DNA of 39,555 bases from an uncultured Lachnospiraceae bacterium (GTDB lineage Bacteria > Bacillota > Clostridia > Lachnospirales > Lachnospiraceae). Of this stretch, positions 1 through 26,570 are shown in pieces. The notes beneath the pieces are model-generated. The model searched no databases. It saw only the letters and a program-made list of their open reading frames with translations, and had not been told where the DNA came from. The DNA lies in the NCBI GenBank assembly GCA_947173945.1, contig CAMWGV010000025.1, forward strand, positions 1-39,555, written 5' to 3'. The position numbers and the translations under genes are program-made. How positions within the stretch are numbered: position 1 is the stretch's first letter; every line of letters begins with the position of its first letter.

Positions 1-3000
1 CTGTAATATCATCATTATACTTATCAATAACTAAATTACAATACCCCTTTGCCCCTTCATCTTCGTTAAATAAAAGTGACACCCAAGAGTAGTCTTTAAT
101 CCCAAAGAAATTCTGCAAATCTTTAGGGACAATATTTAACAAATAATTACGCAAATTTTCTGGATGCATATTTAAAAATTCATGTAATCTTTTAAAGCCA
201 TCACATTCAATAAATTCTCCAATCGTTTCTTTGTATAATTCTTGATAAATTTTCCAGAAGAATGAAAACGCTGATGCAAAAATATGTCTTAACACGATCT
301 TGTCATTACTCACATTAAAGAATGGAGGATTGATACTTCCCTTAATCATGGAAACCGGATTTTTATAATAATTCAGATCGTGGGAACTATTAGGACAAAA
401 TGTAATGGCATATGCAGCCGATTTCAAACTTCGACCTGCTCGACCCGCTCTTTGTGCATAGTTTGCAGGAGATGGCGGCATATTACGCATAAATACTGTC
501 TCTAAAGAACCAACATCCACCCCCATTTCAAATGTGGTTGAACAACTAAGGACATTTATCTTTTTATCTTTAAACTCTTTCTGATATTCATATGCTCTGT
601 CACTTGATAGTTGTGCAGTATGTTCATGCACAGACATCGGTGAGATATCAAGATTTGTAAACAAATTATAGTAATGATTATCCTTAAGAACAGATATATA
701 GTCGTATTCTTCAAGATGACCATTACACTTTGGATTATCGCATACCTCCCTAACACTATATGGTGTTATATTCTTACATTCGGGACAAATAAATAATTTT
801 TTTACAGTTTTAGCCTTAATCTTTTTGCTATTTAATACATATGCTTTTCTTTTACCAAACGACTGCAATAATACATATTCCTTATTTACCATATATCTCC
901 AAACATTTGCTAATAGCTTTCTGGCTGTTTCTTCATCTCCCCCCAACACTTTAGTAACATATTTTAAACGCTTATTGGTTTTACCTTGTTCTGGACACCA
1001 GCCCTCAATATATGATAAGCTAGAAGATATCTGATCATATCCTTTTTGAAATCCTGTTACTGTAAATTTCCCAACATCCGCTTTAGTCAATGTTGTTTCT
1101 ATACTTAATGCAGCATCTTTCATCATTGATTTGGTTAAATTCTTAAATAATATGATGGTTTCCTCTGCAGACAATCCAAGATTTTTTGGTGCCGGAACGC
1201 TAAAATCTACATCAAACATCATAATGCCTGTCTTCATTAATGAATTTCTAGCTTTAAAATTAGAAATCTCTTTTAATGTATGAATCCATGCTTCTTTAAT
1301 AACTGTATCTTCACTCTCTTTGGGGAAAAGCAGATACTTCTGAAATTTTGCTTCTAATAATGATATAAAATAACTTAAACTGATTCCATTATCCACTTGT
1401 TCCTTATTCTCATCTACAATTTCTTTAATAATACGTTTTATAAGACTGTCTTGATATGTACTCTGCAAATATGTTGCAAAAAAAGCTGCTGTTTGTCTAT
1501 TATCGGAAAATGCTAAAAACTGCTTTACCAGACTATCTTTGTGATCAACAATCTGTTCTCCGTCATCTCCAAAAAAATCGTCCTCAATAGTTGTAACTTC
1601 TATGTGATGTTCTTCTCCTGGTAATTCATTATATAACGCTGTTGCAATAACAGCTGTTGCCGCTTCAGTACCCAAAAAATAAGGACGCAAAATACTTCTT
1701 TGACCATTAACACTATGACAGCATGGACAACTATGGAGCTTTTCTCCTCTTTTCTTGATTTTTATCAATTTGTTAATATATTTTGTGCCATGACCACACT
1801 GCAAGCCATTAACAGAAGTTGCACGTTTTATTGCACCACATTTTGAACAAATCTGATATGAATTTTCATCACTATCATCATCTTCATCAAAATCACCGCT
1901 CAACAAATATACCTCTGGATTATAATCATCATTGAATTTTGATTTTTGTACCAGATACCCCTCTATTTCTTCTCCAGTAATATAAAGTGCATTACAGTTA
2001 TTGCAGAAAGAAATCTCGAACACCTTATACCCAATATCTGATTCATCATACGGTTTTTCCTTATATGTCTCCATACGATTCACAAACAATTTATATGATG
2101 GATTAAGGGTAACATATACACCTTCTATTCCTCGTAAGAACATATGGTATTTTGCTTCAAACAACCTCTCATTGTATTTCAAGGCATTAGATGCTACAGC
2201 AATAAAATCCGTTAAATCATCTACTGTAATTTGCAATTCAAATGCCACCTCAGTTACTGTTTTTATCTGATTAAATAATGCTCTACGAACGTCAAAATAA
2301 AAACTATCATGGAGAATTATATCAAACAATATTTCCGACAACTCTTTATTATTTTCAATTTCCACCCCATATTTCTTGATGGTTTCCACTATTTTGGAAT
2401 CCATATAATGATCCCGGATCATGGTAGCCAGTTCTTTATATAACCCAAAGTTTATTTTCGTTACATCATGTTCAGGCTTAGCCTCAACTGTATGAGAACG
2501 CACTATGCCTGAACTTTCAAATTTTGCCGTACATAACGCTTCTCCAAAATGTATTATTTCATTATTTAATTTTTCATCACCTAGAGTCGCGCTAGTAAGA
2601 ATAAATTTAATATCATCTCTTCTAAGCATAGCTTTAACTCGCTTAACAAGAGATGCAACTTCTATTCCCTTTGAACCACTGTACGAATGAGCTTCATCAA
2701 AAACTATGTATTGCCATTTTCTAGAATTTTCTTCACTAAAAATAATATTGTCTCCTGGACGAAGCAACATATACTCTAACATGGCATAGTTTGTAATTAA
2801 AATATTAGGTGGTGTTGCCCGCATTTGTTCTCTACTTATAAGCTCATTTTCACAGAGCGGATTGACTGAAATATCTTCTACTTCTTCATATTTTGCTTTT
2901 GCCTCTCTAAACGTCTCTTTGGTTTCTCCTGTAAACCGGCCAAAAGTAATCTTTGGTTCACCTTCCATACCTGCCAATAGTTCTCTCAACCTACGAATCT

Positions 3001-3463
3001 GATCATTAACCAACGCATTCATAGGGTATATTATTAATGTTCTTACTCCTGGACCAAGAGTTCCTGCCTCTTTTTCTTTCAGCAACTGATTAATAACTGG
3101 AATCAAGAAAGATTCCGTTTTACCAGAACCAGTACCAGTTGTAACAATCAAATTCTTTCCCTCAATAGATTTCCTAACTGCTTCTTCTTGATGCCGATAT
3201 AAACTGCGCTCAGGATGAAATCCTTGAATATTTAGTATGTCTTTTGAAAGCAATCCCTCATCAACCAACTCTTTCAAAGACCTTCCTTTTTCGTAAGGGT
3301 CTGACATACTTAAATATGGTCCTTCGGCTATAGCGCCTTCCTTTTCCAACGCTTCTTTTAACTGAGCATTATACTTTTCATTATTTGTACTGAATGTTGT
3401 CAACATATATCTTCTATAAAAATCTACTATTTTTTTAGAACTCTCTGACGGTCTAAACAACAT
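1..3463 (-). CDS. Large DEAD/DEAH helicase with cysteine clusters, DruE-like (C-terminus outside window)
   Basis: Open from an ATG at 3463 to the left edge, so about 1154 N-terminal residues are visible. It shows a full superfamily 2 helicase set: a Q-motif-like YRHQ near residue 89, Walker A TGTGSGKTE near 109-117, a YPMNALVNDQ Ia-like motif, a DEAH box (FDEAHSYSG), LTSAT, and late motifs FEMGVDVGS and QRAGRAGR. Between the helicase lobes are CxxC pairs (FCNNC, CSKC, CPCC, later CPEC) that look like zinc ribbons, as in DUF1998-type defence helicases such as DruE and DrmB-associated enzymes. The start is supported by an AAGGAGGA site. The gene overlaps the stop of the upstream 948-residue gene by one base (TAATG), so the two are translationally coupled. 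Family knowledge suggests ATP-driven translocation on DNA in anti-phage defence. The exact subfamily (DruE versus other) is inferred, and the C-terminal domain cannot be seen. Confidence 0.88.
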   Translation of the reverse strand, partial: MLFRPSESSKKIVDFYRRYMLTTFSTNNEKYNAQLKEALEKEGAIAEGPYLSMSDPYEKGRSLKELVDEGLLSKDILNIQGFHPERSLYRHQEEAVRKSIEGKNLIVTTGTGSGKTESFLIPVINQLLKEKEAGTLGPGVRTLIIYPMNALVNDQIRRLRELLAGMEGEPKITFGRFTGETKETFREAKAKYEEVEDISVNPLCENELISREQMRATPPNILITNYAMLEYMLLRPGDNIIFSEENSRKWQYIVFDEAHSYSGSKGIEVASLVKRVKAMLRRDDIKFILTSATLGDEKLNNEIIHFGEALCTAKFESSGIVRSHTVEAKPEHDVTKINFGLYKELATMIRDHYMDSKIVETIKKYGVEIENNKELSEILFDIILHDSFYFDVRRALFNQIKTVTEVAFELQITVDDLTDFIAVASNALKYNERLFEAKYHMFLRGIEGVYVTLNPSYKLFVNRMETYKEKPYDESDIGYKVFEISFCNNCNALYITGEEIEGYLVQKSKFNDDYNPEVYLLSGDFDEDDDSDENSYQICSKCGAIKRATSVNGLQCGHGTKYINKLIKIKKRGEKLHSCPCCHSVNGQRSILRPYFLGTEAATAVIATALYNELPGEEHHIEVTTIEDDFFGDDGEQIVDHKDSLVKQFLAFSDNRQTAAFFATYLQSTYQDSLIKRIIKEIVDENKEQVDNGISLSYFISLLEAKFQKYLLFPKESEDTVIKEAWIHTLKEISNFKARNSLMKTGIMMFDVDFSVPAPKNLGLSAEETIILFKNLTKSMMKDAALSIETTLTKADVGKFTVTGFQKGYDQISSSLSYIEGWCPEQGKTNKRLKYVTKVLGGDEETARKLLANVWRYMVNKEYVLLQSFGKRKAYVLNSKKIKAKTVKKLFICPECKNITPYSVREVCDNPKCNGHLEEYDYISVLKDNHYYNLFTNLDISPMSVHEHTAQLSSDRAYEYQKEFKDKKINVLSCSTTFEMGVDVGSLETVFMRNMPPSPANYAQRAGRAGRSLKSAAYAITFCPNSSHDLNYYKNPVSMIKGSINPPFFNVSNDKIVLRHIFASAFSFFWKIYQELYKETIGEFIECDGFKRLHEFLNMHPENLRNYLLNIVPKDLQNFFGIKDYSWVSLLFNEDEGAKGYCNLVIDKYNDDIT

Positions 3464-6309
3464 TACCTTGTCCTCCTTAGTCTTTTTCTATCAAATATAA
3501 ATTCTGTTATCTCTGAATCCAATAAAATAAATCGGGAGACATCTTGTATCGTATCTAATAATGGATCATTGCAACTAATAATCATATCTCTTTCTACATC
3601 ATAATACGGATCCATCCATATTTCTTCGTTGTATGAAAATAACTGCATAGTAGCCTTAATTTCTTCTTCTATTTGATACAACTCTATACGTATTCTGCCA
3701 AATTTCTTCAAAGTATCTTTTTTCCCAGAATTCATATGACCTAAATATGTATTTTCAGCCTCCTTTTCTGTAAGATATATGCGATATTCATATTCTAATG
3801 GGAGCACCTCTTCATCGCATACAAGCATTTTTACTATTAGCATACAATTAGTAATATTATTTATATCAATAGCGCCAACACCCTTCTTAATTTTTAATGG
3901 AGTTTCTATTACATCAAAACAAAACTCATCAGATTCTTCCATTGACGGATACAAATCATAATATCCCTCTTTGGTTAATTCAGGAAATAAATTTTTTCCT
4001 TCATAACATTCTCTATGATTAATCAAAATATTATCTGTTTGATAATCCTTTACTGTCAGATAAGGTATCGCCTTTCCCTTTAAATTAACAGTTGTATACA
4101 CTCCTTCTTTTTCTGAATATTCCAGTTCAAAAAACGGTTCTACTAACAAATTTCTTAAAATTCGCGGTAATGGAACTTTTCTTTTTTTATTATCAACATA
4201 ACATATAACTATCTCCTGATCTTTCTTCTTATATTCGTCTCTAATATTTCTAATAAATTCGGAAATATTTATTCTAAATAAGCCGGGCTCCAATTCCTCT
4301 CCATCTAAAATATGTTCTTCCTTTCTCCTCAAATAAGCCCCTGCCGAAACTGCCCCTGGAATCTTTATATAAAGAATTTCGTTTAAATCTCCATACCATA
4401 AATACTCCGGTTTATCAATTCTCATTTCTGGTAGTGAAAATCCATACATAAATACTTTTAATGGCATGCTTAATGTAAACACTTCATCCATATAAAAATC
4501 AAATTTTATCTCCTCCATTTCCGATGATAATGGAATAGTATAAGTTGTACTAAAATTTTCCACAGCATCTAATTGTATCCAATTTTTCGGAATATTCATG
4601 AGTACTGTATTATAATGAACAATTGTAAAATCCGCATATTCATCATACATAAATCTGGCCTTGTTAAACTTGCAACTAAACTTTTTTAATGCCAAGTATT
4701 CGCAAAGAAGTTTGTTTTGTTCACCAGGAATATCCAGTTCTATGGTAAAGAATCCTTGAGCATGCCCCAATACATCTTCTAATGCCATAGTTACAGCAAC
4801 CTTAGTCTTATCTTCTGGCCAAACGCAATAAGTTTTCTCATGTATATCCAATAACATATATAATCTTCCATTTACTTTCAAAGAAGTTCCACCCATTTTC
4901 ACTTCTGGAACCACAAAAGAAATTGTCGGATGGAAAGGTGATGCTAAAACCTTCTTATCTCCTCTTGTAATAGTATACTTTTCTATAACAGAATCAAATA
5001 TTGGTTCAACAGAAAATTCACCAAGTATAGATAAGGGATGTTTATCAACGTAGCAAACACTCTCTTCTCCAATTATTACAGAATAATAATCCCAAAATTT
5101 ACAACCGTCATACAAATCAATTATGTCATTCTCATTATCCCAATTGACATTTGCTGTTTTTTTTGTGAGTAAATAGTTATGACCTTTTGTAAATTTTCCA
5201 ATATTATTCCATTTTCTATCAAATATGCGATATGAGCTTTCTGAAATTTTATAATTCTTTTTGACTATAGATTTTATACAAATATCAATTCTCGTAAAAA
5301 TATCTGGTATCTGAATCATTATTTGATCTGAGATGAATATACCAAAAGATGTATACAACTCTAATCTCCTAGTTTCCATACAGCCATTTATGGTAATTTC
5401 CACAACTGCATTTCCATCACAATCATCACTTCGAAACTTTTGGGCCGGTATTATTAAAAAAGCCTTTTCGCTCCCATCATCCACATGAATATATGGCTTA
5501 TGACTTATAGTCGTTCTCTCAATTATTACATTTCCTCTAACCTCATTTTTTTCATTTTCACGTTTTTTCAGCCAATTCACAAATGCTTTTTCATACCTAT
5601 TTGTTACAATCTCTGGAATTTCTCCTTCATAAAAATATCTATCAATCATCTCCAAAATAGGGTAAAACATTTTTTGCAGATTTTCTGATGTACATTGAGC
5701 AAATATAGCTCGTGTAGATTTTAATAATTTATATGTTTTTGCAGCCCTAACTCCACTTTCTCCCGATATAATAGCATCATTATTGTTTTTAAGTGTTTCT
5801 GCCATAAAACTTGATAAGTCTTCCAAATCTTCGGAAATATCGTCCTGTAATTGTCTAAATAAATTATTTTCATAATATGCATACGAAAAGTCTAAAAAGC
5901 CATGCATATAAGAATCTGTAACAAAAGCATGTGCCTTAACATTTTCTACATACATAGCTGTATTACCATCCTCCCTACTCAACTCAAAAAGACGGTATTC
6001 CCTTATGGTTTTCAAAAAAATTCGTCCTATATAATTTTGTTTTGCAACAGAAATATCTGTTCCAATCTGTTCATTAAATACTTTCCAATACTTTCCGTTC
6101 CTAAAATGACGTATTGCAACTTGAACCATCGTCAGTGATAAAATGATATCAGGTCTTGGCAAACTCTGCACAAATAAATGATTAATCTTCCAATTCGCAT
6201 TTTCAAGAAGTTCTCGATACATATCTTCAGACACCTGAATTTGACCAAGCAATATTAAACTATTATCTCTAATTGTTGATTCTATCTCAGATACATTAAT
6301 AAACTTCAT
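3463..6309 (-). CDS. 948-aa protein of unknown fold, partner of the helicase (DruH-like candidate)
   Basis: The start ATG at 6309 has an AGAAGGAA site. I recognise no catalytic motif. Residues 1-250 are mostly helical (for example RPDIILSLTMVQVAIRHF, then a GRIFLKTIREYRLFEL stretch and an AHAFV...MHGFLDFSYAYY patch). From about residue 260 on, short alternating hydrophobic strands dominate, as in tandem Ig-like or beta-sandwich domains. No signal peptide or membrane segment is present. It is coupled to the helicase by a TAATG overlap, so the two products probably act together. The arrangement of a large unknown protein followed by a giant helicase is that of Druantia type III (druH-druE), which is why DruH is proposed; I could not align it to DruH, so this rests on context plus a helical N-terminal resemblance. 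Alternative: the partner of another helicase-based defence system. Confidence 0.8.
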   Translation of the reverse strand: MKFINVSEIESTIRDNSLILLGQIQVSEDMYRELLENANWKINHLFVQSLPRPDIILSLTMVQVAIRHFRNGKYWKVFNEQIGTDISVAKQNYIGRIFLKTIREYRLFELSREDGNTAMYVENVKAHAFVTDSYMHGFLDFSYAYYENNLFRQLQDDISEDLEDLSSFMAETLKNNNDAIISGESGVRAAKTYKLLKSTRAIFAQCTSENLQKMFYPILEMIDRYFYEGEIPEIVTNRYEKAFVNWLKKRENEKNEVRGNVIIERTTISHKPYIHVDDGSEKAFLIIPAQKFRSDDCDGNAVVEITINGCMETRRLELYTSFGIFISDQIMIQIPDIFTRIDICIKSIVKKNYKISESSYRIFDRKWNNIGKFTKGHNYLLTKKTANVNWDNENDIIDLYDGCKFWDYYSVIIGEESVCYVDKHPLSILGEFSVEPIFDSVIEKYTITRGDKKVLASPFHPTISFVVPEVKMGGTSLKVNGRLYMLLDIHEKTYCVWPEDKTKVAVTMALEDVLGHAQGFFTIELDIPGEQNKLLCEYLALKKFSCKFNKARFMYDEYADFTIVHYNTVLMNIPKNWIQLDAVENFSTTYTIPLSSEMEEIKFDFYMDEVFTLSMPLKVFMYGFSLPEMRIDKPEYLWYGDLNEILYIKIPGAVSAGAYLRRKEEHILDGEELEPGLFRINISEFIRNIRDEYKKKDQEIVICYVDNKKRKVPLPRILRNLLVEPFFELEYSEKEGVYTTVNLKGKAIPYLTVKDYQTDNILINHRECYEGKNLFPELTKEGYYDLYPSMEESDEFCFDVIETPLKIKKGVGAIDINNITNCMLIVKMLVCDEEVLPLEYEYRIYLTEKEAENTYLGHMNSGKKDTLKKFGRIRIELYQIEEEIKATMQLFSYNEEIWMDPYYDVERDMIISCNDPLLDTIQDVSRFILLDSEITEFIFDRKRLRRTR

Positions 6310-6466
6310 AAAGCTATTTTCCTTCTCGTATATCGTTCTTTTATCTTCTTAAGCAATTTTACCTTTTCAATAATATTATTTTATTAGTAGTGACCGAATA
6401 CTGGATACTATGTTTTTGGGGTAATAAATAACTAAAAATATTTCCAAATAATATCTCGTATACACT

Positions 6467-6646
6467 CTAATACTTAAGATTTTCTATTTCCACAATATCA
6501 TCCAAACCACAATTTAATGCTATGCAAATACGAACTAATACATCTAATGATACATTTTCGTTATTTGCCATCTTTGTAAACGTACTCGCTGCTATCTTAG
6601 TTTCTCTTCGCAAATTCTATTTTTATTTTCCTTGTAAATAATACAT
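6467..6646 (-). pseudogene. Decayed XRE/Cro-type repressor fragment
   Basis: In one minus-strand frame ending at the stop at 6467-6469, about 49 codons read as the C-terminal two thirds of a small Cro/C1-type HTH protein: LRRETKIAASTFTKMANNE, then VSLDVLVRICIALNCGLDD. This matches the usual layout of the ~68-residue Firmicutes regulators (R/K-rich helix 2, recognition helix, then 'LDVLxxICxALNCxxxDI'). The N-terminal part is broken by two in-frame stops (6617-6619 and just beyond). An ATG follows the Argonaute stop directly, so the gene once started there. It sits in the 337-base gap between the Argonaute and the 948-aa/helicase pair and may once have controlled one of them. Confidence 0.6.
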
Positions 6647-9600
6647 CTAGATAAAATATCTATAATCATAAATTATCCCTTCATATTGTGATAACAGCCA
6701 TCCAATTCGTGCAATTTCATTTGAAGACTCAATCGTGCAAGGTAATTTGGAATACAAGCCGAAACTATTCCAATTCATTTTTGACAATCCCAAAATCTCC
6801 ATTGCAATTTGTTTCATTGTCCCATTACCATAATGTTTCACAATTTTAAGTGGCAAAGGAATTGTTTTCCCACCTTGAATATATTTATAATTCGGATTTC
6901 TAACAGATGGTGCTATTCCATGTGTAAATAAAAACATTGTGTTCAAATTCAATGGAAAACACAACCCTCTCCGAACGGGAAAACCATCGATTTCCGACAT
7001 ATATTTATTATACTCAAAGCATCTTAACTCATCTGCATAAGTTATTTCTAACAACTCAACATCCTGTATCCCTGCACTTATAAGACTTTCTGTGATACCC
7101 TTTATTTCTTCTTCTTTAAATGGTGTCCTTTTATGTACAACAACTCTTTTGGGTAATTCAGCAAACGATTTATAAAATAGTTCCTTAATATTTAAACCAA
7201 TTCTAAATGCTTCATTTTCCGAAAGGAACGGATTTTTCTTTCTATCAAAAGTTACTTCACTAATTTTAGAAAGCTTATATTTCATTGCTTGTCCATCAGA
7301 AGAATATATATGACTACATCCCACAACAATATTTTCTCCACCCAAAGAATTATTAACACTATATCCTATTCCTGCAAAGGCGGTATCTTGCTGCACCCCT
7401 GATATAGTCCAAGGAATTCTGCCAGACTTTACATATATTGCTAATGAAACAGCCCACATAATTTGGCATCGCATATTACTCTCAATTGTCTTCTCACGTA
7501 TAAATTGTGTTGCTATACTTTTTTGTGCAGCATACGCTTTAACAAAATCATGTAAGTCATACTTTTCATTATCTTCAGAGTATTCTGTTAAAAATTCATA
7601 TTCTTTAGGTATATATATAATTGTCACGTCAGTGGCATTAGAATTTACTTGATCTAATTTTTGAGTTAATATATTTCCTAACTCTATTGTATCCTTTTTG
7701 ATATTCATAGTATTTTTCGGTAAATAACTTACCCACTTGTTTTCATCAGGTGTGGGAATATTTAATCCCGTTTTAAATGCTTGATGAAAACCCGGGAAAG
7801 GAATAACAAAATCAATATTATAACTTACATTCTGAAAATAATTCAACTGATTTAAAAATTCAGACAATTGTTTTTCATAGCCATTAGGACATATAATGCC
7901 CAATGAAATAGATGTCCTAAGTACCCTCTCATTCAACAAATAATCATAAGGTGCATTCTTTACTAAACCCCGCATAGGATGAAAATCCGTTATCATGCAA
8001 TTTTTCTGAGCATTATAAAATTTTAATTCTGAATCCCGACATTCAACGCCCTTAAAAATAATCCTTTTTTTGATTTCAGTCGATAACTGAATTTGCGTAT
8101 GAACCCCAGTATTTATTCCAATAATAGCAGTATTTCTTATTATTTGAAATACAAAATCCGTTTCACTACCTAATGGATAAGAAAACTGTATACCAGCCTT
8201 TCCAAATAATTTATCTGCCCATTCCTTAATATAAGCATGTATGTTGTAATTAGGTTTTCCTAAATTAATTGATTGACTAAAATCATCAGCAAATTGCTTC
8301 ATTTCATCATGCGTTATTTTTATGTCTTTATCCAAAACAAATGTAGGTTCTAACGTAATATAACTATATTTACTATCAAACAGCAATGAAACTTTAATAC
8401 CCCTATAGGCTATCACTAATTTATCACTAATCCATTTCTTTATCGGCTTACTTACATCCCATATTTTATTTTTAGAATACATAAGTGAATACTGTTTCCC
8501 TAATAAACAAGTAATAGTCTTTATCAATAATTCCTTAAATTGGCTCCTAAATATTAGTGCTTCCCTCGTAAATGGAGTCAATATCATTCCACTTTTTATC
8601 TTGTCGCCACAAATATTCTGAATATTTTCCCTTTCACCCCACACATATAATAGATTTTTATATGGTACAGCCATAATATCATTTTCGTAAAGCATTTTAC
8701 AGTATTCCCACGGTTTTTCACTATCTCCATATAAAATTTCTAATTGATAGCAATTTTTTGCAAATGATATCGGAAAAACATTCGTATCTGCTATTTTATT
8801 TATAATAATATCGCCGGAAACAAATCCATTTGTCGAAATATCAATTTTTGAGCCTAACTTTTGTTTCAACTTTTCAATGTTTTGCATAAAAATCTTATCC
8901 TCACTCATACAATGCCGAGCCAAACTATAGATAGTCTTATCAAATCCATCGGTAGGAACATAATAAGCCACTCGTCCCACTTCATTTACATATTCGATTA
9001 ATTCTTTTACCTCTTCGTTAGGATTATCTCCATATCCACACCAAAACAGTCTTCCAGTTCCTCTACTTTCATATGCATTTCTTAATGCTTTCATCAATGA
9101 CTTGTCACGTCCACTATATCCTACTACCATCAGATCATGATTAACCAATTCATGATTTATCGCTTCAGCAAAGACATCATTTTGAGCATCCAATTCCTCT
9201 GCTGTATTTTTCAATTTTCCATATTTATAATCTCCATGCAAAGCAACACATAATAGTTCACTTTTTACATCATTACGATATATTCGCCCCACTGATTCTA
9301 ATGTAATTTCTATCGGGGTTATATCATACTGATGAGCACACTTTACCATCAAACCATCAAAGTTCGTTGTCCACGCACTCTTAAACAAATTTTTTTCCGC
9401 TAGCATGGATATCAAATGGTATCCTAAACTAGGCTTTTTTCCATCAATCAAATGCTGAAAATATTTTCTGCGATCATCATCTATAGGATATGCCTTCTGG
9501 GCATAAAATGAATATTCTTCATCAGAATTTAAAGCTGGATATATATTTTGATTGTCCAGCCACTTCTGAATTACAAAACGGACACTATCAAGTTTAATAT

Positions 9601-9787
9601 TAGTATAATTATCAACTAGCACTGGATTTTGCGATAAAAAGATTTCTTTTTTCCAATCCCAAATACAATCTGCAGCTGATGGAATACCTGATTCTACAGA
9701 AGCGCCTGCACCCAAGAGAAGCACATGTGGTGTATCAATATTTTGTTTCATAGACCTTAAAAATTGATCAAAAGTTATAATATCCAT
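6647..9787 (-). CDS. Single-chain SIR2-APAZ-PIWI short Argonaute
   Basis: A 1046-residue protein with a GGAGGGGAG site before the ATG. Residues about 20-290 are a SIR2 domain: nucleotide-binding LLLGAGASVESGIP (24-36), WTTNFDG (139-145) with the conserved Asn/Asp, LHGD (183-186) with the catalytic-type His, and MVVGYSGRD (220-228). Residues about 320-600 are the APAZ region, ending with the HPMRGLVKNAPYDYL motif (603-617) typical of the APAZ/MID entry. MID and PIWI follow: KAYAAQKSIATQFIREKT (750-767) and GRIPWTI...TAFAGIGYSV (789-810). The first catalytic Asp of PIWI is Gly (GIG, ~807), so slicing is not expected, as in other short Argonautes. Known SIR2-APAZ/Ago (SPARSA) complexes use guide-directed target recognition to switch on NAD+ depletion and abort infection; here both halves are in one chain. 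A TATAAT hexamer lies about 40-50 bases upstream of the start, but without a clear -35. Confidence 0.9.
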   Translation of the reverse strand: MDIITFDQFLRSMKQNIDTPHVLLLGAGASVESGIPSAADCIWDWKKEIFLSQNPVLVDNYTNIKLDSVRFVIQKWLDNQNIYPALNSDEEYSFYAQKAYPIDDDRRKYFQHLIDGKKPSLGYHLISMLAEKNLFKSAWTTNFDGLMVKCAHQYDITPIEITLESVGRIYRNDVKSELLCVALHGDYKYGKLKNTAEELDAQNDVFAEAINHELVNHDLMVVGYSGRDKSLMKALRNAYESRGTGRLFWCGYGDNPNEEVKELIEYVNEVGRVAYYVPTDGFDKTIYSLARHCMSEDKIFMQNIEKLKQKLGSKIDISTNGFVSGDIIINKIADTNVFPISFAKNCYQLEILYGDSEKPWEYCKMLYENDIMAVPYKNLLYVWGERENIQNICGDKIKSGMILTPFTREALIFRSQFKELLIKTITCLLGKQYSLMYSKNKIWDVSKPIKKWISDKLVIAYRGIKVSLLFDSKYSYITLEPTFVLDKDIKITHDEMKQFADDFSQSINLGKPNYNIHAYIKEWADKLFGKAGIQFSYPLGSETDFVFQIIRNTAIIGINTGVHTQIQLSTEIKKRIIFKGVECRDSELKFYNAQKNCMITDFHPMRGLVKNAPYDYLLNERVLRTSISLGIICPNGYEKQLSEFLNQLNYFQNVSYNIDFVIPFPGFHQAFKTGLNIPTPDENKWVSYLPKNTMNIKKDTIELGNILTQKLDQVNSNATDVTIIYIPKEYEFLTEYSEDNEKYDLHDFVKAYAAQKSIATQFIREKTIESNMRCQIMWAVSLAIYVKSGRIPWTISGVQQDTAFAGIGYSVNNSLGGENIVVGCSHIYSSDGQAMKYKLSKISEVTFDRKKNPFLSENEAFRIGLNIKELFYKSFAELPKRVVVHKRTPFKEEEIKGITESLISAGIQDVELLEITYADELRCFEYNKYMSEIDGFPVRRGLCFPLNLNTMFLFTHGIAPSVRNPNYKYIQGGKTIPLPLKIVKHYGNGTMKQIAMEILGLSKMNWNSFGLYSKLPCTIESSNEIARIGWLLSQYEGIIYDYRYFI

Positions 9788-9946
9788 TTTCTCCCCTCCA
9801 AAAAAATCGACAATATATTATTAATTATAACATATTGCCAATACTATTTCTACTTAAACAGAAACAAAGGTTCGAATATTTTATTTAATATATAACCTAT
9901 TTCTTGTTATTATCAATTTTTTTGTTGTATTTCATATTTTTGAGCA

Positions 9947-9990
9947 TAAAAAAGGTCCACATACTTATCTTTTACATAAGTACATGAACT
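9947..9990 (-). terminator. Factor-independent terminator in repeat copy A
   Basis: Arms at 9954-9967 and 9977-9989 pair over 13 bases with some G-U pairs, with a 9-base loop, and are followed on the minus strand by a run of T (9953-9948). It lies downstream of the 10983-10144 gene and would end that transcript before the Argonaute gene. Confidence 0.75.
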
Positions 9991-10108
9991 CTCTTTTGTC
10001 CTATGTCATAGCTTGCTCTTCATGTGTCATAAATGTGTCATATAATATGTTTCATACGTTCTGTAATCGGTGTATTTTCAGGGATTTGCAAAATACAGGT
10101 AAGTTCCT
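9948..10108 (-). repeat. Dispersed ~150-bp repeat, copy A
   Basis: This shares long identical runs with 12121-12274 and 18382-18527, including the blocks 'atgtcatagcttg', 'tcttcatgtgtcata' and 'gtattttcagggatttg'. Read on the minus strand it begins with a short coding-like remnant (ACCTGTAT...GAAAATACA, readable as IPENT-ITERMKHII in copy B) and ends in a terminator hairpin. No transposase or integrase is attached. It separates the Argonaute from the 279-aa membrane-protein gene. Confidence 0.85.
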
Positions 10109-10143
10109 CCCCTAGAGGTCATTACATATTGTCTAGTAACATA

Positions 10144-10983
10144 CTAATTATTTCCCGAAATATATCCAAATAGCAAAATTATATAATAGATGCCATATAA
10201 CTCAAAAAAAACTCCTAAAAAACGTAATGCTGTATGTACTATTCCTAATATGCCATCTTTAAATATTTCCCTTACATTATAGTTTTCAACGCTTATTCTC
10301 AAATGATTAAACATTGAAATAACAACCACAATGCCTGTAACCACACTAACTGCTAAAGGTACATCATCCTTACAAAGATTATTATACAATACTACAAAAA
10401 TAACACTTTCTAAAAAATAGATAAGTGTAAAAACACAATCTTTCATATTCGCTTTACGTTGATGTGTCACAATTAATTCAATCCAAGCTGGTATAAATAT
10501 ATATACCATCATAAAATCATTAAAATAATCTATAAATGTAGATGGTTGTGAATATGAGTTTGAACCCTTAGAGCTAGTATCAGTGATGTTTGTTAACGCA
10601 TCCCTCTTCTGTTTTTTTTCATCAAGTGCATCATTTAACTTATCAAAAAAAACAATGGCTGCTGCAGCAGCACCAACCATATCACTACCATCGTATGTCC
10701 CTAACATACCATCTGAATAATTAAAATGTCCCAAATCATCAGTTATACTATGATGATACGAATTGATTTTTCCTAGTTTTTTCTTGTATATATCATAAAA
10801 GCATCCTTTTTCATCAACATAACCATACACTTCCCCAGAATTAATATTCTTTACTACTCGTAAACCATTTTCGATTCTATTATATTCCGCTATATCTTGC
10901 CCCCACATACTATTTGGAATATTTATTTTTCCATTATTGAACACCGCTAATACTTTCTTATTTCTATCAAATAATGTACCCAT
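10144..10983 (-). CDS. Predicted membrane protein with soluble N-terminal half
   Basis: A 279-residue protein; the ATG follows a GAAGGAG site. The first ~150 residues are soluble. They begin with short beta repeats (GTLFDRNKKVLAVFNNGKI, later VYGYVDEKGCFYD) reminiscent of WG-type or 'DxxG' strands, then carry an Ala run AAAAAIVFF and a Ser/Asn-rich linker. The C-terminal half has four hydrophobic segments at roughly 158-176, 181-202, 206-226 and 250-274, so it is probably an inner-membrane protein with its N-terminus in the cytoplasm. It follows the 93-aa gene by 26 bases and likely shares its transcript; the terminator in repeat A follows. I do not recognise the family. In a defence-rich neighbourhood a membrane-pore effector is possible, but nothing in the sequence shows it. 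Confidence 0.8.
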   Translation of the reverse strand: MGTLFDRNKKVLAVFNNGKINIPNSMWGQDIAEYNRIENGLRVVKNINSGEVYGYVDEKGCFYDIYKKKLGKINSYHHSITDDLGHFNYSDGMLGTYDGSDMVGAAAAAIVFFDKLNDALDEKKQKRDALTNITDTSSKGSNSYSQPSTFIDYFNDFMMVYIFIPAWIELIVTHQRKANMKDCVFTLIYFLESVIFVVLYNNLCKDDVPLAVSVVTGIVVVISMFNHLRISVENYNVREIFKDGILGIVHTALRFLGVFFELYGIYYIILLFGYISGNN

Positions 10984-11009
10984 AACAACTCCTTCTTTCT
11001 AATATCTAT

Positions 11010-11291
11010 TTAATGTTTACAAAGAAATGCACATGGAATAAAATAATATGTTACTACATCTTGTCCTCTGTCTTTTACAATACCTTGGTAAAGGAATCTT
11101 GCGGAGTTTAAGTAATCTGATGCCATATTTGAAAGAACTTGTGACGAATAGAATCTATCATCATTAAATTCTTCACCTACTTTTATTGTTCTTAAACATT
11201 TCATTACACCAACATATGATAAATCATATATCTTATCTTCCAATATGACTTTTTGAATCTGATAATCATCTGGTATATTGTCAAATATCAT
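11010..11291 (-). CDS. Small hypothetical protein (93 aa)
   Basis: Acidic, globular-looking protein without signal peptide or membrane segment (MIFDNIPDDYQIQKVI...YYFIPCAFLCKH). The C-terminus carries two Cys in CAFLC. Its ATG overlaps the stop of an upstream 24-codon reading frame (ATGA), which suggests coupled translation. It precedes the 279-aa membrane protein by 26 bases and is probably its operon partner. Not recognised. Confidence 0.65.
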   Translation of the reverse strand: MIFDNIPDDYQIQKVILEDKIYDLSYVGVMKCLRTIKVGEEFNDDRFYSSQVLSNMASDYLNSARFLYQGIVKDRGQDVVTYYFIPCAFLCKH

Positions 11292-11362
11292 ATTAGATAT
11301 CCCTTTAAAGTTCCATTCTCATCATATCGTTCACGCATTCCCATAAGATCACTCCAAACCAT
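11288..11362 (-). other. Short leader-like reading frame (24 codons) overlapping the 93-aa gene
   Basis: From ATG at 11362 (or a GGAG-preceded ATG at 11344) the frame reads MVWSDLMGMRERYDENG and ends in a TGA that overlaps the next ATG. It could be a coupled leader peptide or the last codons of a lost gene. The sequence upstream shows no larger open frame. Confidence 0.3.
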
Positions 11363-11378
11363 ATATTAAGATTTCACC

Positions 11379-11780
11379 TTACTTATTGTTCAATTCTTCC
11401 ATATCCCTAAATTCTGATACATTTACACACTGGGGATGTTCCATATCTAGACACAGGAAATCCTTGTCGCCTGTGAGGATTATATCAACATCTGCTATGA
11501 TTGCTGCATTTAATATGGGCTGATCTTTTGCATCACGAATGAATTTTTCAGCATGATAAGCCGCCGGAATCAATTCATAGGATAATTCAGCCAAAAGCAC
11601 CTCAGCATCCGGAAGTTTCTCCGGTTTTTTGCACCCTATGACTTCTCTAAGTTCATAAATATTAGTATCACAAAGTACCATATTGTGATGCTCGGTAATA
11701 TACAATAGCGTCTGTGCAACCTGCGACTTCAGAAAAAGTATTGCGGATATCAGAATGTTGGTATCTACAAGTATTTTCAT
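11379..11780 (-). CDS. PIN-domain ribonuclease toxin (VapC-like)
   Basis: A 133-residue protein with the PIN layout: first acidic residue in ILVDTNILISA (Asp6), a central Glu in YELREVIG, and the C-terminal acidic pair in RDAKDQPILNAAIIADVDIILTGDKDFL, where D-x-P-x-L-N-A and TGDKDF are typical. Family members are Mg2+-dependent endoribonucleases that cut RNA unless held by a cognate antitoxin. Its ATG overlaps the stop of the AbrB-type gene by 4 bases, the standard antitoxin-first order. It belongs to the 'putative toxin, PIN family' group paired with AbrB proteins rather than to the classical short VapC; full length, no defects. Confidence 0.88.
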   Translation of the reverse strand: MKILVDTNILISAILFLKSQVAQTLLYITEHHNMVLCDTNIYELREVIGCKKPEKLPDAEVLLAELSYELIPAAYHAEKFIRDAKDQPILNAAIIADVDIILTGDKDFLCLDMEHPQCVNVSEFRDMEELNNK

Positions 11781-12040
11781 CTGCTTCCTCCATATCTTAC
11801 TTCATTTACCAAATTCTGCACATCATCTTCATTATATACACCCATATCCTCCGAAACTCCCGAAAACGCTCTCTGTGCCTTGTAAATTGCCTGTGCAGAA
11901 GCGTTGTTGATAACAATCTCTCCATTATCCTTCTGTACAAACAAAATCTTGTCTCCCGAACGGAGTCCCAGCAACTTTCTTATCTCAACAGGAACTGTAA
12001 TCTGACCATTTGCTGATACTTTAGCTAAGTTCATATTCAT
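11777..12040 (-). CDS. AbrB/MazE-type (SpoVT-AbrB fold) antitoxin
   Basis: 87 residues. The N-terminal swapped-hairpin barrel is clear: AKVSANGQITVPVEIRKLLGL followed by GDKILFVQKDNGEIVI. The C-terminal ~35 residues (from AIYKAQRAFSG, with a VYNEDDVQNLVNEVRYG tail) are the likely toxin-binding arm. It should bind its own promoter and neutralise the PIN toxin encoded 4 bases overlapping downstream. The start ATG is preceded by AAAGGG. Confidence 0.9.
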   Translation of the reverse strand: MNMNLAKVSANGQITVPVEIRKLLGLRSGDKILFVQKDNGEIVINNASAQAIYKAQRAFSGVSEDMGVYNEDDVQNLVNEVRYGGSR

Positions 12041-17714: not shown

Positions 17715-17964
17715 TTTATTACCAAATTACATTCTTACTTGATAGTTTCATTGTATCCAACTTCTAAGGTAAATTCAACCTGAGAAATTTGTTGTTGCCT
17801 CTTCCTAATTACCTAATGATAAAATCAAATGCACTGTTCCCAGTCTCTTATCATTAACAGTATACTTTTATATTGGTTCTTATAAATATTCTTTAAAAAT
17901 GCTAATAACATTCCCCAAGGGCTATATTTATAATTATCCATTCTTTATATGTCCTACCACATTA

Positions 17965-18045
17965 ATCCACATTTCGATTATACTCTACATGTTTCGAAAA
18001 ATCACCAAGCTCATTGTCCTAGGCGCCAATGACATTGTCCTACCT
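17965..18045 (-). promoter_or_regulatory. Conserved promoter/operator block, copy 1
   Basis: On the minus strand: two 10-bp direct repeats TAGGACAATG (18042-18033 and 18021-18012), exactly 21 bp apart, then a weak -35 (GTGATT, 18005-18000) and TATAAT (17982-17977) 17 bases later. The same arrangement recurs at 26.1 kb. Direct repeats two helical turns apart next to a weak -35 suggest an activator or dimeric regulator site. Confidence 0.55.
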
Positions 18046-18396
18046 CATATCTTTCTCCTCTATAATTTTTCCTTCTGCCGTACACACTTTTCCATTGTAT
18101 CCTTCACATTCTCCTGCCATCATGACTAGTTCCACCTGCCACCATAAAGGCAGAATTCTCCCTTGGTGGCAGATGGTTGTTTTATCAGAGTGGAACATAT
18201 AGAAGGCTACTCTTACCCCCCCACTGTCCCTATACCTCTGTTCCGTCCTTATCAGCCCTGCCTTCCACAAATCTTTGATGGTCCGTCTGACAGTGGTCTC
18301 GGACAGTTTCAGTTCCCATGCAATGGTAGGGACTGCCGGCCAGCACTTTCCTTTCTGGTCTGCCCATTCGGCAAGACAAATAAAAAAGGCCCACAT
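18040..18396 (-). pseudogene. Truncated helix-turn-helix (HTH_36-like) mobile-element protein, copy 1
   Basis: The frame reads FFICLAEWADQKGKCWPAVP, then TIAWELKLSETTVRRTIKDL and WKAGLIRTEQRYRDSGG: the helix-turn-helix core of the replication/transcription initiators carried by clostridial mobile elements. The first codons come from the terminator stem of repeat C, so the native N-terminus (seen in the second copy as KRYNFIYQMDLPHRAVSVYIYL) has been replaced. The tail past residue ~70 is unrelated out-of-frame sequence. Confidence 0.65.
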
Positions 18397-18423
18397 ACTT
18401 ATCTTTACATAAGTATATGGACC
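18381..18423 (-). terminator. Factor-independent terminator in repeat copy C
   Basis: Arms 18388-18401 and 18410-18423 pair over 14 bases with only two G-U pairs, 8-base loop, then TTTTTT on the minus strand. It is the strongest of the three related hairpins. Confidence 0.8.
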
Positions 18424-18527
18424 CTCCGTCCTAATGTCATAGCTTGTTCTTCATGTGTCATATAATGTGCTTCATACATTCCGTAACCGCTGTATTTTCA
18501 GGGATTTGCGAGATACAGGTAAGCTCC
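18382..18527 (-). repeat. Dispersed ~150-bp repeat, copy C
   Basis: Same order and orientation as copies A and B, with an internal deletion of about 14 bases where A and B have the second 'gtgtcataaat' unit. Its hairpin end fuses into the helix-turn-helix gene. At the corresponding place in the second segment copy (26.37 kb) the repeat is absent, so it either inserted here or marks a recombination point. Confidence 0.85.
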
Positions 18528-18574
18528 TGCTGTGAACTATCCAAGTTGGTCAAGTGTGTGCTGTATTGGTCAAA

Positions 18575-18667
18575 TTATATTTGATGCTCTAACAGCCATT
18601 GTAGGACATCCTCATACTGCTTTTTATCCGCTGCTACATCCAGTATTAAATCTGTTTCTTTGTCAGT
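18575..18667 (-). pseudogene. Short coding remnant between repeat C and the DUF6985-like gene
   Basis: An open stretch of about 30 codons reads KETDLILDVAADKKQYEDV then LQWLLEHQI and stops at 18577-18575. It has protein-like composition but no start or ribosome site, and a stop directly upstream, so it looks like the end of a lost gene. Confidence 0.35.
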
Positions 18668-19193
18668 CTAATCATTTTACCAGTACCTCATAGGTCTCTC
18701 TGTTCTGCTCCACCAACCTTCAAATGGAATCAATCCAACCAAACACAATCAACAATATCACGATCAACCTTAACAAATTTTTCATCTATAAAAACAGCAG
18801 CCCAACCATGTTCTTCGTCCCATGGACAATTAAGCACCAATATGACACATACAGCAACATTTTGCGACTCATATGGGGGATTACCTGTTTTGCTTCTGGC
18901 ATAAACTGCATCTTCCAAAGCATAAAGCGTAACATCTGTGCCAGTGTGTTTTACAAGATCTGCAGGCGATTTTATTTCCGGCCAATATTCTTTACTTTCT
19001 TCCTCGTCATCAGGTCCCCACTGTTCATACATCTCATCATAATAAAGACGTATAAAGGCTTCCAGCATCTCGGTCTCCAGTTGGGGCGTCCATTTTTCTA
19101 TCAGTCTCTTACAGTAAATGACACCTTCCCCTTCATCTTCGCCCAGATCATCTATTTCAAATTCCTTTGGATTTAGTAGTAAATTATTTATCA
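18662..19193. repeat. Duplicated segment, copy 1
   Basis: From the 'gtcagtctaatcatttt' block through the DUF6985-like gene start this matches 26550-27082 almost base for base. Identity ends sharply at the start codon, where this copy continues into the zinc-ribbon gene. The helix-turn-helix and promoter blocks further left are also shared but more diverged. Confidence 0.9.
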
Positions 19194-19194
19194 T
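18730..19194 (-). CDS. DUF6985-like protein, copy 1 (possible immunity-type protein)
   Basis: 154 acidic residues without signal peptide. The layout (LIEKWTPQLETEMLEAFIRL, WPEIKSPADL, then CPWDEEHGWAAVFIDEKFV near the C-terminus) matches the DUF6985 type, a family often found as single or tandem genes in polymorphic-toxin and immunity neighbourhoods. Its ATG overlaps the stop of the zinc-ribbon gene (ATGA), so the two are co-translated. A second copy at 26619-27083 differs at about 7 of 465 bases and one residue (Ile2/Leu2). Function not established. Confidence 0.75.
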   Translation of the reverse strand: MINNLLLNPKEFEIDDLGEDEGEGVIYCKRLIEKWTPQLETEMLEAFIRLYYDEMYEQWGPDDEEESKEYWPEIKSPADLVKHTGTDVTLYALEDAVYARSKTGNPPYESQNVAVCVILVLNCPWDEEHGWAAVFIDEKFVKVDRDIVDCVWLD

Positions 19195-22222: not shown

Positions 22223-23311
22223 TTACACAAAAAATTTGTCTGCCTCAAGAGTATGCACATAATATTCATTTTCAGGATATAGCTCTGTTTTGCGTTCTCC
22301 TGAAACAATAAGATTTCTTGCTATTTCATTTGGATTAAGCAATCTTATTTCAAAAAGGTACTCTTCACTTCCACACAAATTTTCTAACGCACGGCAATCA
22401 AATCCCATTTTCTTTATATTTTGTACAGATGAATCACATATATAATTAGGAAATACTGTAAAAACACCTCTCTGAGCTCGTATTCTCTCACTTTGATACT
22501 GGTGCAATATAGCTAATGGCGGCAACGGTACATTCATATAGTTTTCAATCTTCACTGGAAGTGCATCAACATAATATCTCAAACAAAGATAAAAAAAAGG
22601 ATTAAATTCATGTTGTTTTAACAAACCAACAATTTCCCCAGCATGATTATTACGATACTCATCAATTAACCCCAAGTTTAATATACCATCTAATTCTATA
22701 TCTTTCTTTCCATATTTACTTATTTCAAAATACAAATTGCTGTCAGAAAATTCTTTTACAAAATCCAATGCTATATTATCCAAACCAACTATCTTTAATG
22801 CATCCTTTACAAGTTTTTCTGAAAAATGTTTATAAACTTGCTCATTTAACTTTTTAGGATTCAAAATCCAAACAGATGGATGTATGGTATGACGAAGATT
22901 TGTCAAATCTTCCCTCCTACGAGGGTCTAAAAATGGTTCTAAGGCAAAAGATAACGCTGTTCTAGCCGACTCAGACCAATCCAACAATCTTGTTTTTCCA
23001 AAATTGTGCTGATAAAGAGCCTGCCACTCCAAACGATTATTAGGTTTCGCTTGTGTAATATGATACACTCTTGCTTTATAATTTTGTATACGATAATCTT
23101 CTCTCAATCGTTCAGTATTATAATTTCCAAATACATTAATCTCTTCTTCTTCCTTTGCCCTTAATATCGTTGGAAGCAAAGTATAGTCATCCGACGAATG
23201 TCCTCTAAACCAAAGCGGTTGCCCTAATGTTTCACCAACATCCTTAGCTATTTCAGCGACTTTTTGATAAAATTCTGCCAAGTTGTATACCGTATATGAT
23301 TTTAATCTCAT
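22223..23311 (-). CDS. FRG-domain protein
   Basis: 362 residues. The N-terminal half is an FRG domain: QPLWFRGHSSDDYTLLPTI (31-49) with the name-giving F-R-G, then WQALYQHNFGKTRLLDWSES (~101-120) with the usual H-x-x-x-x-TRLLDW signature and ALSFAL. FRG proteins are widespread in phage-defence and toxin settings and their biochemical activity is poorly known; a link to ADP-ribosyl chemistry has been proposed. The rest of the protein (to EADKFFV) has no known motif. Its ATG overlaps the stop of the HExxH protein by 4 bases, so it is the third gene of a coupled operon. Confidence 0.88.
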   Translation of the reverse strand: MRLKSYTVYNLAEFYQKVAEIAKDVGETLGQPLWFRGHSSDDYTLLPTILRAKEEEEINVFGNYNTERLREDYRIQNYKARVYHITQAKPNNRLEWQALYQHNFGKTRLLDWSESARTALSFALEPFLDPRRREDLTNLRHTIHPSVWILNPKKLNEQVYKHFSEKLVKDALKIVGLDNIALDFVKEFSDSNLYFEISKYGKKDIELDGILNLGLIDEYRNNHAGEIVGLLKQHEFNPFFYLCLRYYVDALPVKIENYMNVPLPPLAILHQYQSERIRAQRGVFTVFPNYICDSSVQNIKKMGFDCRALENLCGSEEYLFEIRLLNPNEIARNLIVSGERKTELYPENEYYVHTLEADKFFV

Positions 23312-25587: not shown

Positions 25588-25621
25588 ACGTTCTCCCCTA
25601 TCCCTCTGCCTATAAAACATC

Positions 25622-25819: not shown

Positions 25820-26090
25820 TGCTTACCTCCATTTACTAGTTCATTCCAATTATGACCGACATTAATATATATTTTATGATGTTTGTAAAAACAACACGTT
25901 AGTATCTTATCAAACTAGCCCGTGTGTGTCAATTTGAAATACCAACTTTTTTCATGAAACATATTAATGCATGTATATATATTATAGATAACTATAATTT
26001 ATGCAGTCCTTCTGAATCTTATCAAATAAGTCCCATTCAAATTTTCATTTAATATATGATAGTTTTACATCACACGACGCCATCTAGCTC
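25820..26090. other. AT-rich gap between conserved promoter block 2 and the FRG operon
   Basis: About 270 bases of AT-rich DNA with no convincing reading frame, hairpin or repeat. It probably forms a long leader of the FRG operon if transcription starts at the block 2 promoter. Confidence 0.4.
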
Positions 26091-26094
26091 ATTA

Positions 26095-26175
26095 AACCAC
26101 ATTTCGATTATACTCTACATCTTTCGAGAAGTCACTAAGCTCATTGTCCTAGTCGCCAATGACATTGTCCTACCT
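26095..26175 (-). promoter_or_regulatory. Conserved promoter/operator block, copy 2
   Basis: Minus strand: direct repeats TAGGACAATG at 26172-26163 and 26151-26142 (21 bp apart), -35 GTGACT (26135-26130), 17-base spacer, TATAAT (26112-26107). The layout is identical to 17.97-18.04 kb. The first gene downstream is the 65-aa/metallopeptidase/FRG operon. Confidence 0.6.
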
Positions 26176-26234
26176 CATATTCTTTTCACTCTATATTTTT
26201 TCTTTCTGCCGTATATACTTTTCCATTGTATCCT

Positions 26235-26570
26235 TCACATTCTCCTGCCATCATGACCGGTACCACCTGCCACCATAAAGGCAGAATTCCCCTTCCTTAC
26301 TATGGTCGGAACTGCCAGCCAGCACTTTCCTTCCTTGGCTGTCCGTTCGGCAAGATAAATGTAAACCGAGACTGCTCGATGCGGCAAATCCATCTGATAG
26401 ATAAAATTATATCTCTTCATCCTGTTTTCCATACTCCTCTCTTCCTCTGTGTCCGTGATGACCTGTTTGGCTTCCTGCCGTCCCTTCGCCTCGGTGTGGT
26501 TCTTACCATTCCTTTTCTGCTCTGTGACAGCTTTTAAAATCTATTCCTTCGTCAGTCTAATCATTTTGCC
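26235..26570 (-). pseudogene. Broken helix-turn-helix mobile-element gene, copy 2
   Basis: The frame begins MIRLTKE-stop and continues KAVTEQKRNGKNHTEAKG, then MKRYNFIYQMDLPHRAVSVY and IYLAERTAKEGKCWLAVPTI, after which the recognition helix seen in copy 1 (KLSETTVRRTIKDLWKAGLI) is deleted and the frame ends in VAGGTGHDGRRM. The upstream stop and the deletion both kill it. Together with copy 1 it shows the intact ancestor, a HTH_36-like initiator of a mobile element. Confidence 0.65.

What the first reader, a model, noticed from the sequence alone, without database searches (positions are those of the whole stretch)
1..9787. Single-chain SIR2-APAZ-Argonaute beside a Druantia-like helicase pair
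The sequence shows a SIR2-APAZ-PIWI fusion followed on the same strand by an unknown 948-aa protein and a giant DEAH helicase with zinc-ribbon cysteines. SPARSA-type systems (SIR2-APAZ/Ago) and Druantia-type systems (DruH/DruE) are each known as separate defences. Their adjacency could be two stacked systems or a composite in which the helicase supplies or clears nucleic acid for the Argonaute. The 337-base gap with a dead repressor argues that they once had separate control.
Basis: partly seen in the sequence, partly recalled or inferred. Interest (0 to 1): 0.8.

Follow-up and report, generated by a model that had tools for sequence, protein, structure and literature searches.

The report
Argonaute defence gene beside helicase operon
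Two separate bacterial anti-virus systems, a one-piece guide-directed Argonaute and a giant-helicase operon, appear to have been joined end to end by a recombination that cut off the helicase operon's own switch; in almost all relatives examined the two halves live apart.

Summary
The genes described are present. A 1046-aa single-chain SIR2-APAZ-MID-PIWI Argonaute (6647-9787, minus) is followed by a 948-aa unknown protein and a DruE-like DEAH helicase. The helicase is cut by the contig end; it continues on contig C10 to 1705 aa and is followed by a NERD-UvrD-type helicase, so the unit has three genes. The composite reading is not supported. None of 8 named Argonaute relatives has the helicase operon in its fetched flanks. 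Of 38 other helicase loci one has an Argonaute beside it, of a different (long) type. A 94%-identical copy of the operon in another genus has no Argonaute nearby and an intact 74-aa HTH regulator upstream. In the window this identity stops inside the regulator (6615), and Argonaute homology starts at 6644: the dead repressor belonged to the helicase operon. Side finding: a C-terminal helicase tail and a downstream SF1 helicase gene (seven NERD-type, one other) occur together in 8 of 8 tailed loci; none was seen in 28 tail-less ones. The 948-aa protein fails sequence tests for DruH. Verdict: two stacked systems; the helicase half is a new variant of a known kind.

The parts
6647..9787 (-). single-chain SIR2-APAZ-MID-PIWI short Argonaute (SPARSA-like), 1046 aa; SIR2 residues N142 and H184 correspond to the GsSir2 dyad N142/H186
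6616..6643 (.). junction: helicase-operon identity to G268 ends at 6615; Argonaute homology to L004 begins at 6644
6470..6616 (-). remnant of an HTH_26 (Cro/C1-type) regulator that lost its 5' end; the intact 74-aa homologue heads the same operon in G268
3463..6309 (-). 948-aa protein of unknown fold in the position of DruH; divergent partner of the helicase in relatives; start of helicase overlaps its stop
2..3463 (-). first 1154 aa of a 1705-aa DruE/YprA-like DEAH helicase; the remainder lies on contig C10 (L023:2-1675), followed there by a NERD-UvrD-type helicase (L023:1680-3398)
9955..9989 (-). terminator-like hairpin (14 pairs) upstream of the Argonaute, separating it from the 279-aa protein; a consensus match only

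Best explanation
Two independent anti-phage modules lie next to each other because of a recombination. Module 1 is a single-chain SPARSA. By analogy with GsSPARSA it would load a guide RNA, recognise invading DNA, open its SIR2 pocket and deplete NAD+, so that the cell stops growing or dies. Module 2 is a Druantia-III-like operon: HTH regulator, P948 (inferred infection sensor, in DruH's place), DruE-like helicase (inferred to load on single-strand-containing phage DNA) and a NERD-UvrD-type helicase (inferred to supply the nuclease in trans, docked on the degenerate helicase tail). Shown here: the gene content, the separate occurrence of the modules in nearly all loci examined, and that the identity of the operon to its G268 copy ends inside the regulator where the Argonaute unit begins. 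Inferred: the enzymatic steps, that neither module needs the other, and that the helicase operon may now be transcribed from the Argonaute side.
For: Window 1-6615 is 94.2% identical over 6647 aligned bases to G268 (another genus of the family), and C10:1-3492 is 93.1% identical. G268 has no Argonaute in the 26 kb fetched, ParA/ParB-like genes by eye, and an intact regulator. Argonaute homology to L004 covers 6644-9848. None of 8 named Argonaute relatives has P948 or the helicase in its fetched flanks (4.3-10 kb upstream, 10 kb downstream); by eye they sit in ICE-like, phage-like and restriction-rich surroundings. Of 38 other helicase loci, 37 have no adjacent Argonaute. In 299 genomes of the family the helicase set (6, E up to 1e-60) and the Argonaute-query set (7, E up to 1e-3, some partial) share only the window's genome. 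The pAgo profile is found in 1 of 37 helicase genomes (G484 not given) and in 5 of 249 of a phylum sample that itself holds G000 and G718.
Against: One other helicase locus, G718, has an Argonaute about 230 bases downstream: a long pAgo followed by a protein with weak Helical-REase accessory matches. So of the genomes searched, the two that carry both genes both have them adjacent, although one was the starting case. No terminator-like site was found between Argonaute and P948, so co-transcription is possible. No expression data exist.
Confidence: 0.82

Rival explanations
1. Composite system: the helicase and NERD nuclease-helicase expose or produce single strands that feed guides or targets to the Argonaute, whose SIR2 then kills the cell.
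For: Same strand, 337-base gap, no terminator-like site between them; a second Argonaute-helicase adjacency in G718.
Against: 37 of 38 other helicase loci and 8 of 8 named Argonaute loci lack the partner in the fetched flanks. The second case has a different Argonaute type on the other side. The junction in the window is a truncation scar, not a conserved operon border.
Confidence: 0.07
2. The helicase operon is silent here: losing its promoter region and the regulator's 5' end switched it off, and only the Argonaute is active.
For: The stretch upstream of the operon that exists in G268 has no match here, and the regulator lacks its N-terminal part. Promoter-like matches in 6100-11800 are no more than chance (36 against a mean of 39.0 in shuffles).
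Against: P948 and the joined helicase frame remain open. P948 is 90% identical to G268; the helicase is 97% identical over its first 968 residues and 86% over the next 194, where the G268 sequence has undetermined bases. Read-through from the Argonaute gene is possible.
Confidence: 0.2
3. The junction at 6616-6643 is a chimeric assembly join and the two modules are not adjacent in the cell.
For: The genome is fragmented (108 contigs), and a contig end does break this operon.
Against: The junction lies inside a contig, not at an end, and both sides share the low G+C of this region (29.8-34.2% in 1-kb steps over 1-11000). No reads were available.
Confidence: 0.05

Closest known systems
GsSPARSA (SIR2-APAZ/Ago; PDB 8in8, 8jkz, 8y80; PMC10781750 and PMC10474274, passages seen)
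   Same: SIR2 with the N/H dyad, APAZ, MID-PIWI; fold match over nearly the whole SIR2-APAZ chain
   Different: one polypeptide here, two chains in GsSPARSA
Short pAgos fused to SIR2-APAZ (group Ia, PMC6299218, passages seen)
   Same: same architecture; that paper says the majority of 117 SIR2-APAZ proteins also carry MID-PIWI
   Different: nothing tested here separates it; PADLOC PDLC02384 already models the full-length chain
Druantia type III (DruH-DruE; PMC13192584 sections 9 and 13 read; PMC13316683 abstract only)
   Same: large upstream partner plus DruE-family helicase in that order, DEAH and MrfA-type zinc module
   Different: partner does not match DruH by sequence; no PLD nuclease domains found at the helicase C-terminus; regulator and NERD-UvrD-type gene present
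Druantia III-like branch (III-B) of the YprA survey (PMC12458937, sections named in the report read)
   Same: that branch is said to carry a Vsr nuclease, PLD domains or mostly no nuclease, which fits the tail and no-tail helicases seen here
   Different: no NERD-UvrD-type gene is mentioned for it in the sections and passages read; placement not tested
ARMADA type II (PMC12458937)
   Same: YprA-like helicase with Vsr-type C-terminus accompanied by a UvrD-family helicase fused to a small nuclease domain
   Different: no BrxHII-like or PglX-like gene recognised beside the operon (ORF lists, by eye)

Membership tests
SPARSA / SIR2-APAZ short pAgo | SIR2 NADase domain with Asn-His dyad | tested here: met
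   N142 and H184 align with GsSir2 N142/H186 (dyad from PMC10781750 passages); both invariant in the 9 aligned sequences, window included
SPARSA / SIR2-APAZ short pAgo | APAZ domain between SIR2 and MID-PIWI | tested here: met
SPARSA / SIR2-APAZ short pAgo | MID-PIWI related to short pAgo | tested here: met
   182 bits to 8in8_C over 600-1046
SPARSA / SIR2-APAZ short pAgo | PIWI without slicer tetrad | not tested
   no tetrad alignment was made
SPARSA / SIR2-APAZ short pAgo | guide- and target-triggered NAD+ hydrolysis | not testable with these tools
   needs biochemistry
Druantia type III | DruE-family (YprA) helicase | tested here: met
   PADLOC DruE3 442 bits, E 1.4e-132 for the cut protein; DruE1, DruE2 and DruE4 models also match (420, 351 and 304 bits), so the subtype is not fixed by this
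Druantia type III | DruH partner | tested here: not met
   no PADLOC DruH match for P948 and two kin at E 0.01 or for three kin at E 1, while E. coli DruH matches 11 DruH models; hhalign 0.2%; fold level untested because the P948 model is unusable (pLDDT 29)
Druantia type III | two C-terminal PLD domains in DruE | tested here: not met
   after the zinc motif only 174 aa follow; Pfam finds MZB and no PLD in the G268 C-part and in the G116, G568 and G701 helicases; the window genome's own C-part was not scanned with Pfam
Druantia type III-B branch (PMC12458937) | position on the YprA tree | not testable with these tools
   the reference tree and sequences are not held
[quoted passage not shown]
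   none recognised by eye in ORF lists around the operon in window, C10 and G268; those neighbours were not scanned with profiles

The most novel reading that the evidence does not exclude
The recombination fused two defence modules into one transcription unit, and the fusion was kept because it helps: the DruE-like helicase with its in-trans NERD nuclease produces single-stranded phage DNA that the Argonaute senses, so a non-suicidal first layer triggers an NAD+-depleting second layer. G718, with a long pAgo beside a relative of the same operon, would be a second, independent instance of helicase-Argonaute pairing.
Probability: 0.08. Interest if true: 0.8.

Novelty: new variant of a known kind. 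Interest (0 to 1): 0.45.

Why it matters
It shows at base resolution how a defence island can grow: an Argonaute unit takes the place of the switch of a neighbouring operon, so two immune systems may come under one control without having evolved together. It also points to a helicase-defence variant in which a degenerate tail on the giant helicase and an SF1 helicase gene, mostly of NERD type, appear and disappear together. This suggests that the nuclease was moved out of the giant helicase into a partner, which a pull-down could test directly.

Tried and rejected
Composite Argonaute-helicase system: rejected as the main reading after the neighbourhood surveys and the junction analysis.

P948 as DruH: no useful PADLOC, Pfam, NCBIfam or PDB sequence match. 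The weak hits were taken as chance: Pfam Citrate_ly_lig at E 0.086, an NCBIfam sigma-factor model at E 0.0033 far under its cut-off, and a designed helix bundle in PDB at E 0.0061. The structure prediction from the single sequence is useless (mean pLDDT 29), so no fold search was made for it. No relative was found in plasmids, phages or viral contigs, and no near DNA match in E. coli genomes.

Tail as a solved nuclease fold: a profile search against PDB gave only two hits at E 0.76-0.78. The Vsr-like label rests on the YprA paper's description of that position and on my reading of the pattern, not on a match.

Tail and SF1-helicase statistics: 39 loci were measured. Three were left out before counting: G484 (distant helicase, tail 113 aa, other neighbours), G814 (gene cut, no motif) and G791 (gene at a contig end). 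Of the 36 left, 8 have a tail of at least 111 aa and 28 have 39 aa or less. The neighbours of the 28 were screened with a NERD profile only, so another kind of SF1 helicase could be missed there; the G970 gene scored just 34 bits with it and was recognised by PADLOC and Pfam. One 18-bit match lies 2.6 kb downstream of a tail-less helicase in G1015 and was not followed up. In the pair test the second trait was entered as a copy of the first, because the states seen coincide in all 36 rows. It gives 5 of 5 supported pairs, p 0.0625, which does not reach 0.05. Counting G970 as not NERD gives 4 of 5. The tree carries long-branch warnings for the outgroup and G484.

Helicase loci: of 34 other genomes, 25 were fetched, one place each; 9 with partial or weaker matches were not, nor was a second, partial copy in G718 (contig C22). 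Several loci are cut by contig ends. L016-L021 (weaker family Argonaute matches) have short flanks and were not counted as neighbourhoods. The blast search for Argonautes beside helicases (E 1e-4) could miss a very divergent pAgo; the pAgo profile over 37 genomes found only G718. Four plasmid relatives of the Argonaute in two-chain form were also read: no DEAD/DEAH helicase is annotated in the stretches shown, but that gene table is incomplete.

Full report
What is there. On the minus strand the window holds an Argonaute gene (6647-9787, 1046 aa), a 948-aa gene (P948, 3463-6309) and a helicase gene open at the window edge (2-3463). The window is the whole of contig C25 in a 2.84-Mb, 108-contig genome. 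A search with the G268 copy of the gene after the helicase found a 93%-identical protein on contig C10 at 1680-3395. C10 begins with the missing end of the helicase: the contig ends share an exact 20-base overlap, the frame runs through, and the joined protein is 1705 aa. The unit is therefore P948, a 1705-aa helicase and a 572-aa helicase of the NERD-UvrD type. The G268 copy of the last gene matches PADLOC RTasNERD-Hel (168 bits) over its length, and the G116 relative has Pfam NERD (43 bits); the window genome's own copy gave no Pfam NERD match and is placed by homology. P948 and helicase overlap in TAATG, which fits coupled translation.

Is the pairing conserved? From the Argonaute side, 8 named relatives (41-78% identity) were fetched with 4.3-10 kb upstream and 10 kb downstream. 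None has P948 or the helicase (tblastn, E 1e-4). Their neighbours look like those of conjugative elements, phages and restriction islands (ORF lists read by eye, not scanned with profiles). From the helicase side, 38 other loci were examined: 5 from 299 genomes of the family, 8 more from 392 of the order (its other three were already in hand) and 25 of 34 others from 398 of the phylum. One, G718, has an Argonaute beside it, about 230 bases downstream: a 758-aa long pAgo (PADLOC pAgo_II, 799 bits) followed by a protein with weak Helical-REase accessory matches (best 28 bits). The other 37 have none in the fetched stretches. By genome, the pAgo profile rings in 1 of 37 helicase genomes (G484 not given) and in 5 of 249 of a phylum sample that includes the window genome and G718. 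In the family sample the two sets share only the window's genome. This is what two separate defence modules would give. G718 is the one result that points the other way and cannot be weighed without a larger survey.

How they became neighbours. G268, of another genus in the same family, carries P948 at 90% amino-acid identity and the helicase at 97% over its first 968 residues. DNA alignment gives 94.2% over window 1-6615 (6647 columns) and 93.1% over C10:1-3492, and nothing beyond in the 26 kb of G268 held. In G268 the operon is headed by an intact 74-aa HTH_26 regulator (Pfam 62 bits), with ParA/ParB-like genes (by eye) further upstream and no Argonaute. The G268 helicase frame is itself broken and its sequence has many undetermined bases. 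In the window the identity ends within the regulator, leaving only profile positions 16-61. On the other side of a 28-base junction, identity to L004 covers 6644-9848, that is the Argonaute and about 60 bases before it. An HTH relative (44%) also precedes the partner gene in G247. The direction of events (insertion of the Argonaute or deletion between two neighbours) is not known. No terminator-like site lies between Argonaute and P948, and promoter-like matches are at chance level, so read-through is possible but unproven.

The helicase operon compared with Druantia III. The helicase is of the DruE kind. A Druantia III locus was fetched for comparison (L037, E. coli plasmid, beside Zorya II); its first protein is DruH by PADLOC (2539 bits). 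P948 and its kin do not match PADLOC's DruH models, the E. coli DruH finds nothing in the 39 loci scanned, and profile comparison gives 0.2%. The partners do look like a remote family of their own: a profile from 12 of them matches the protein just upstream of the helicase in 20 of 25 loci not used to build it, with 9 to 484 bits, several under 40. Of the five others, L063, L070 and L071 are cut by the contig end, and L062 and L073 have a large unmatched protein. DruH is reported to be a diverging infection sensor with Ig-like domains, and DruE a helicase that loads on 3' tails and carries PLD nucleases (PMC13192584, sections 13 and 9 read). The helicase here shows no PLD domains: 174 aa follow the zinc motif, and Pfam shows none in four relatives. 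Whether P948 shares the DruH fold is open.

A linked tail and nuclease. Of 36 usable helicases, 8 have a C-terminal tail of at least 111 aa and 28 end within 39 aa of the zinc motif. All 8 are followed by an SF1 helicase gene: seven of the NERD-UvrD type, and one (G970) a UvrD helicase split in two frames whose start looks RelE-like to me. None of the 28 shows one at more than 18 bits with the NERD profile, though other SF1 types were not screened for. On the tree the tail changes state at least 5 times on well-supported branches, and the downstream gene goes the same way in 5 of 5 independent pairs (p 0.0625). The NERD residues D54, E68 and K70 are invariant in seven copies, while the tail has no invariant acidic residue. 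The simplest reading is that the tail is a dead nuclease-like domain that docks the NERD nuclease-helicase; that is inference. The YprA survey (PMC12458937; abstract, sections 5, 7, 8, 9, 26 and passages read) reports Vsr, PLD or no nuclease in its Druantia III-like branch, a NERD nuclease in TALON, and a RelE-UvrD helicase in ARMADA II. I found no mention there of a NERD-UvrD gene with a Druantia-like pair, and its main text does not contain the word Argonaute. A text search for Druantia, NERD and UvrD together returned two papers; the second was seen only in the listing. A search for Argonaute with Druantia or YprA returned 23 papers, not checked for this pairing.

Verdict. The anatomy is confirmed; the composite is not supported. 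Two stacked systems were joined by a recombination that removed the head of the helicase operon. The Argonaute is a known kind. The helicase operon is a variant of a known kind with a possibly new nuclease arrangement.

Noticed in passing
L056:10716-13966 (G718:C4): A long pAgo (758 aa, PADLOC pAgo_II 799 bits) with a weakly Helical-REase-like neighbour lies directly downstream of another partner-helicase pair.
   Followed up: partly
L023:1680-3398, L013:17880-19733, L044:5045-6775, L045:12753-14477, L052:10834-12612, L053:8739-10508, L012:1782-3500: NERD-UvrD-type helicase gene follows those DruE-like helicases that have a C-terminal tail; it was not seen after tail-less ones.
   Followed up: partly
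L073:2865-4981 (G970): UvrD helicase, split in two frames and with a RelE-like start by eye, behind a tailed Druantia-like helicase, recalling ArmD of ARMADA II.
   Followed up: partly
window 22223-25620: FRG-domain protein (Pfam FRG 65 bits, PADLOC PDC-S15 84 bits) overlapping a 770-aa protein without Pfam or PADLOC match: possibly another two-gene defence module.
   Followed up: partly
window 17954-18947 and 26084-26836: Direct repeats (300 nt 97%, 112 nt 90%, 104 nt 89%) flank an about 8-kb stretch with a transporter and the FRG pair; the ORF 18730-19194 in one copy matches DUF6985.
   Followed up: partly
window 11379-11780: PIN-domain protein (Pfam PIN_3, 46 bits), possibly a toxin; no antitoxin identified.
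   Followed up: no
L058:433-5755 (G863): The large partner gene of the helicase seems interrupted by two ORFs that look like transposase genes by eye.
   Followed up: no
L013:7716-9464 (G116): A PADLOC HEC-05 candidate defence protein (744 bits; HNH/GmrSD-like to my eye) sits directly upstream of the partner-helicase-NERD operon, after a WYL-like regulator by eye.
   Followed up: no
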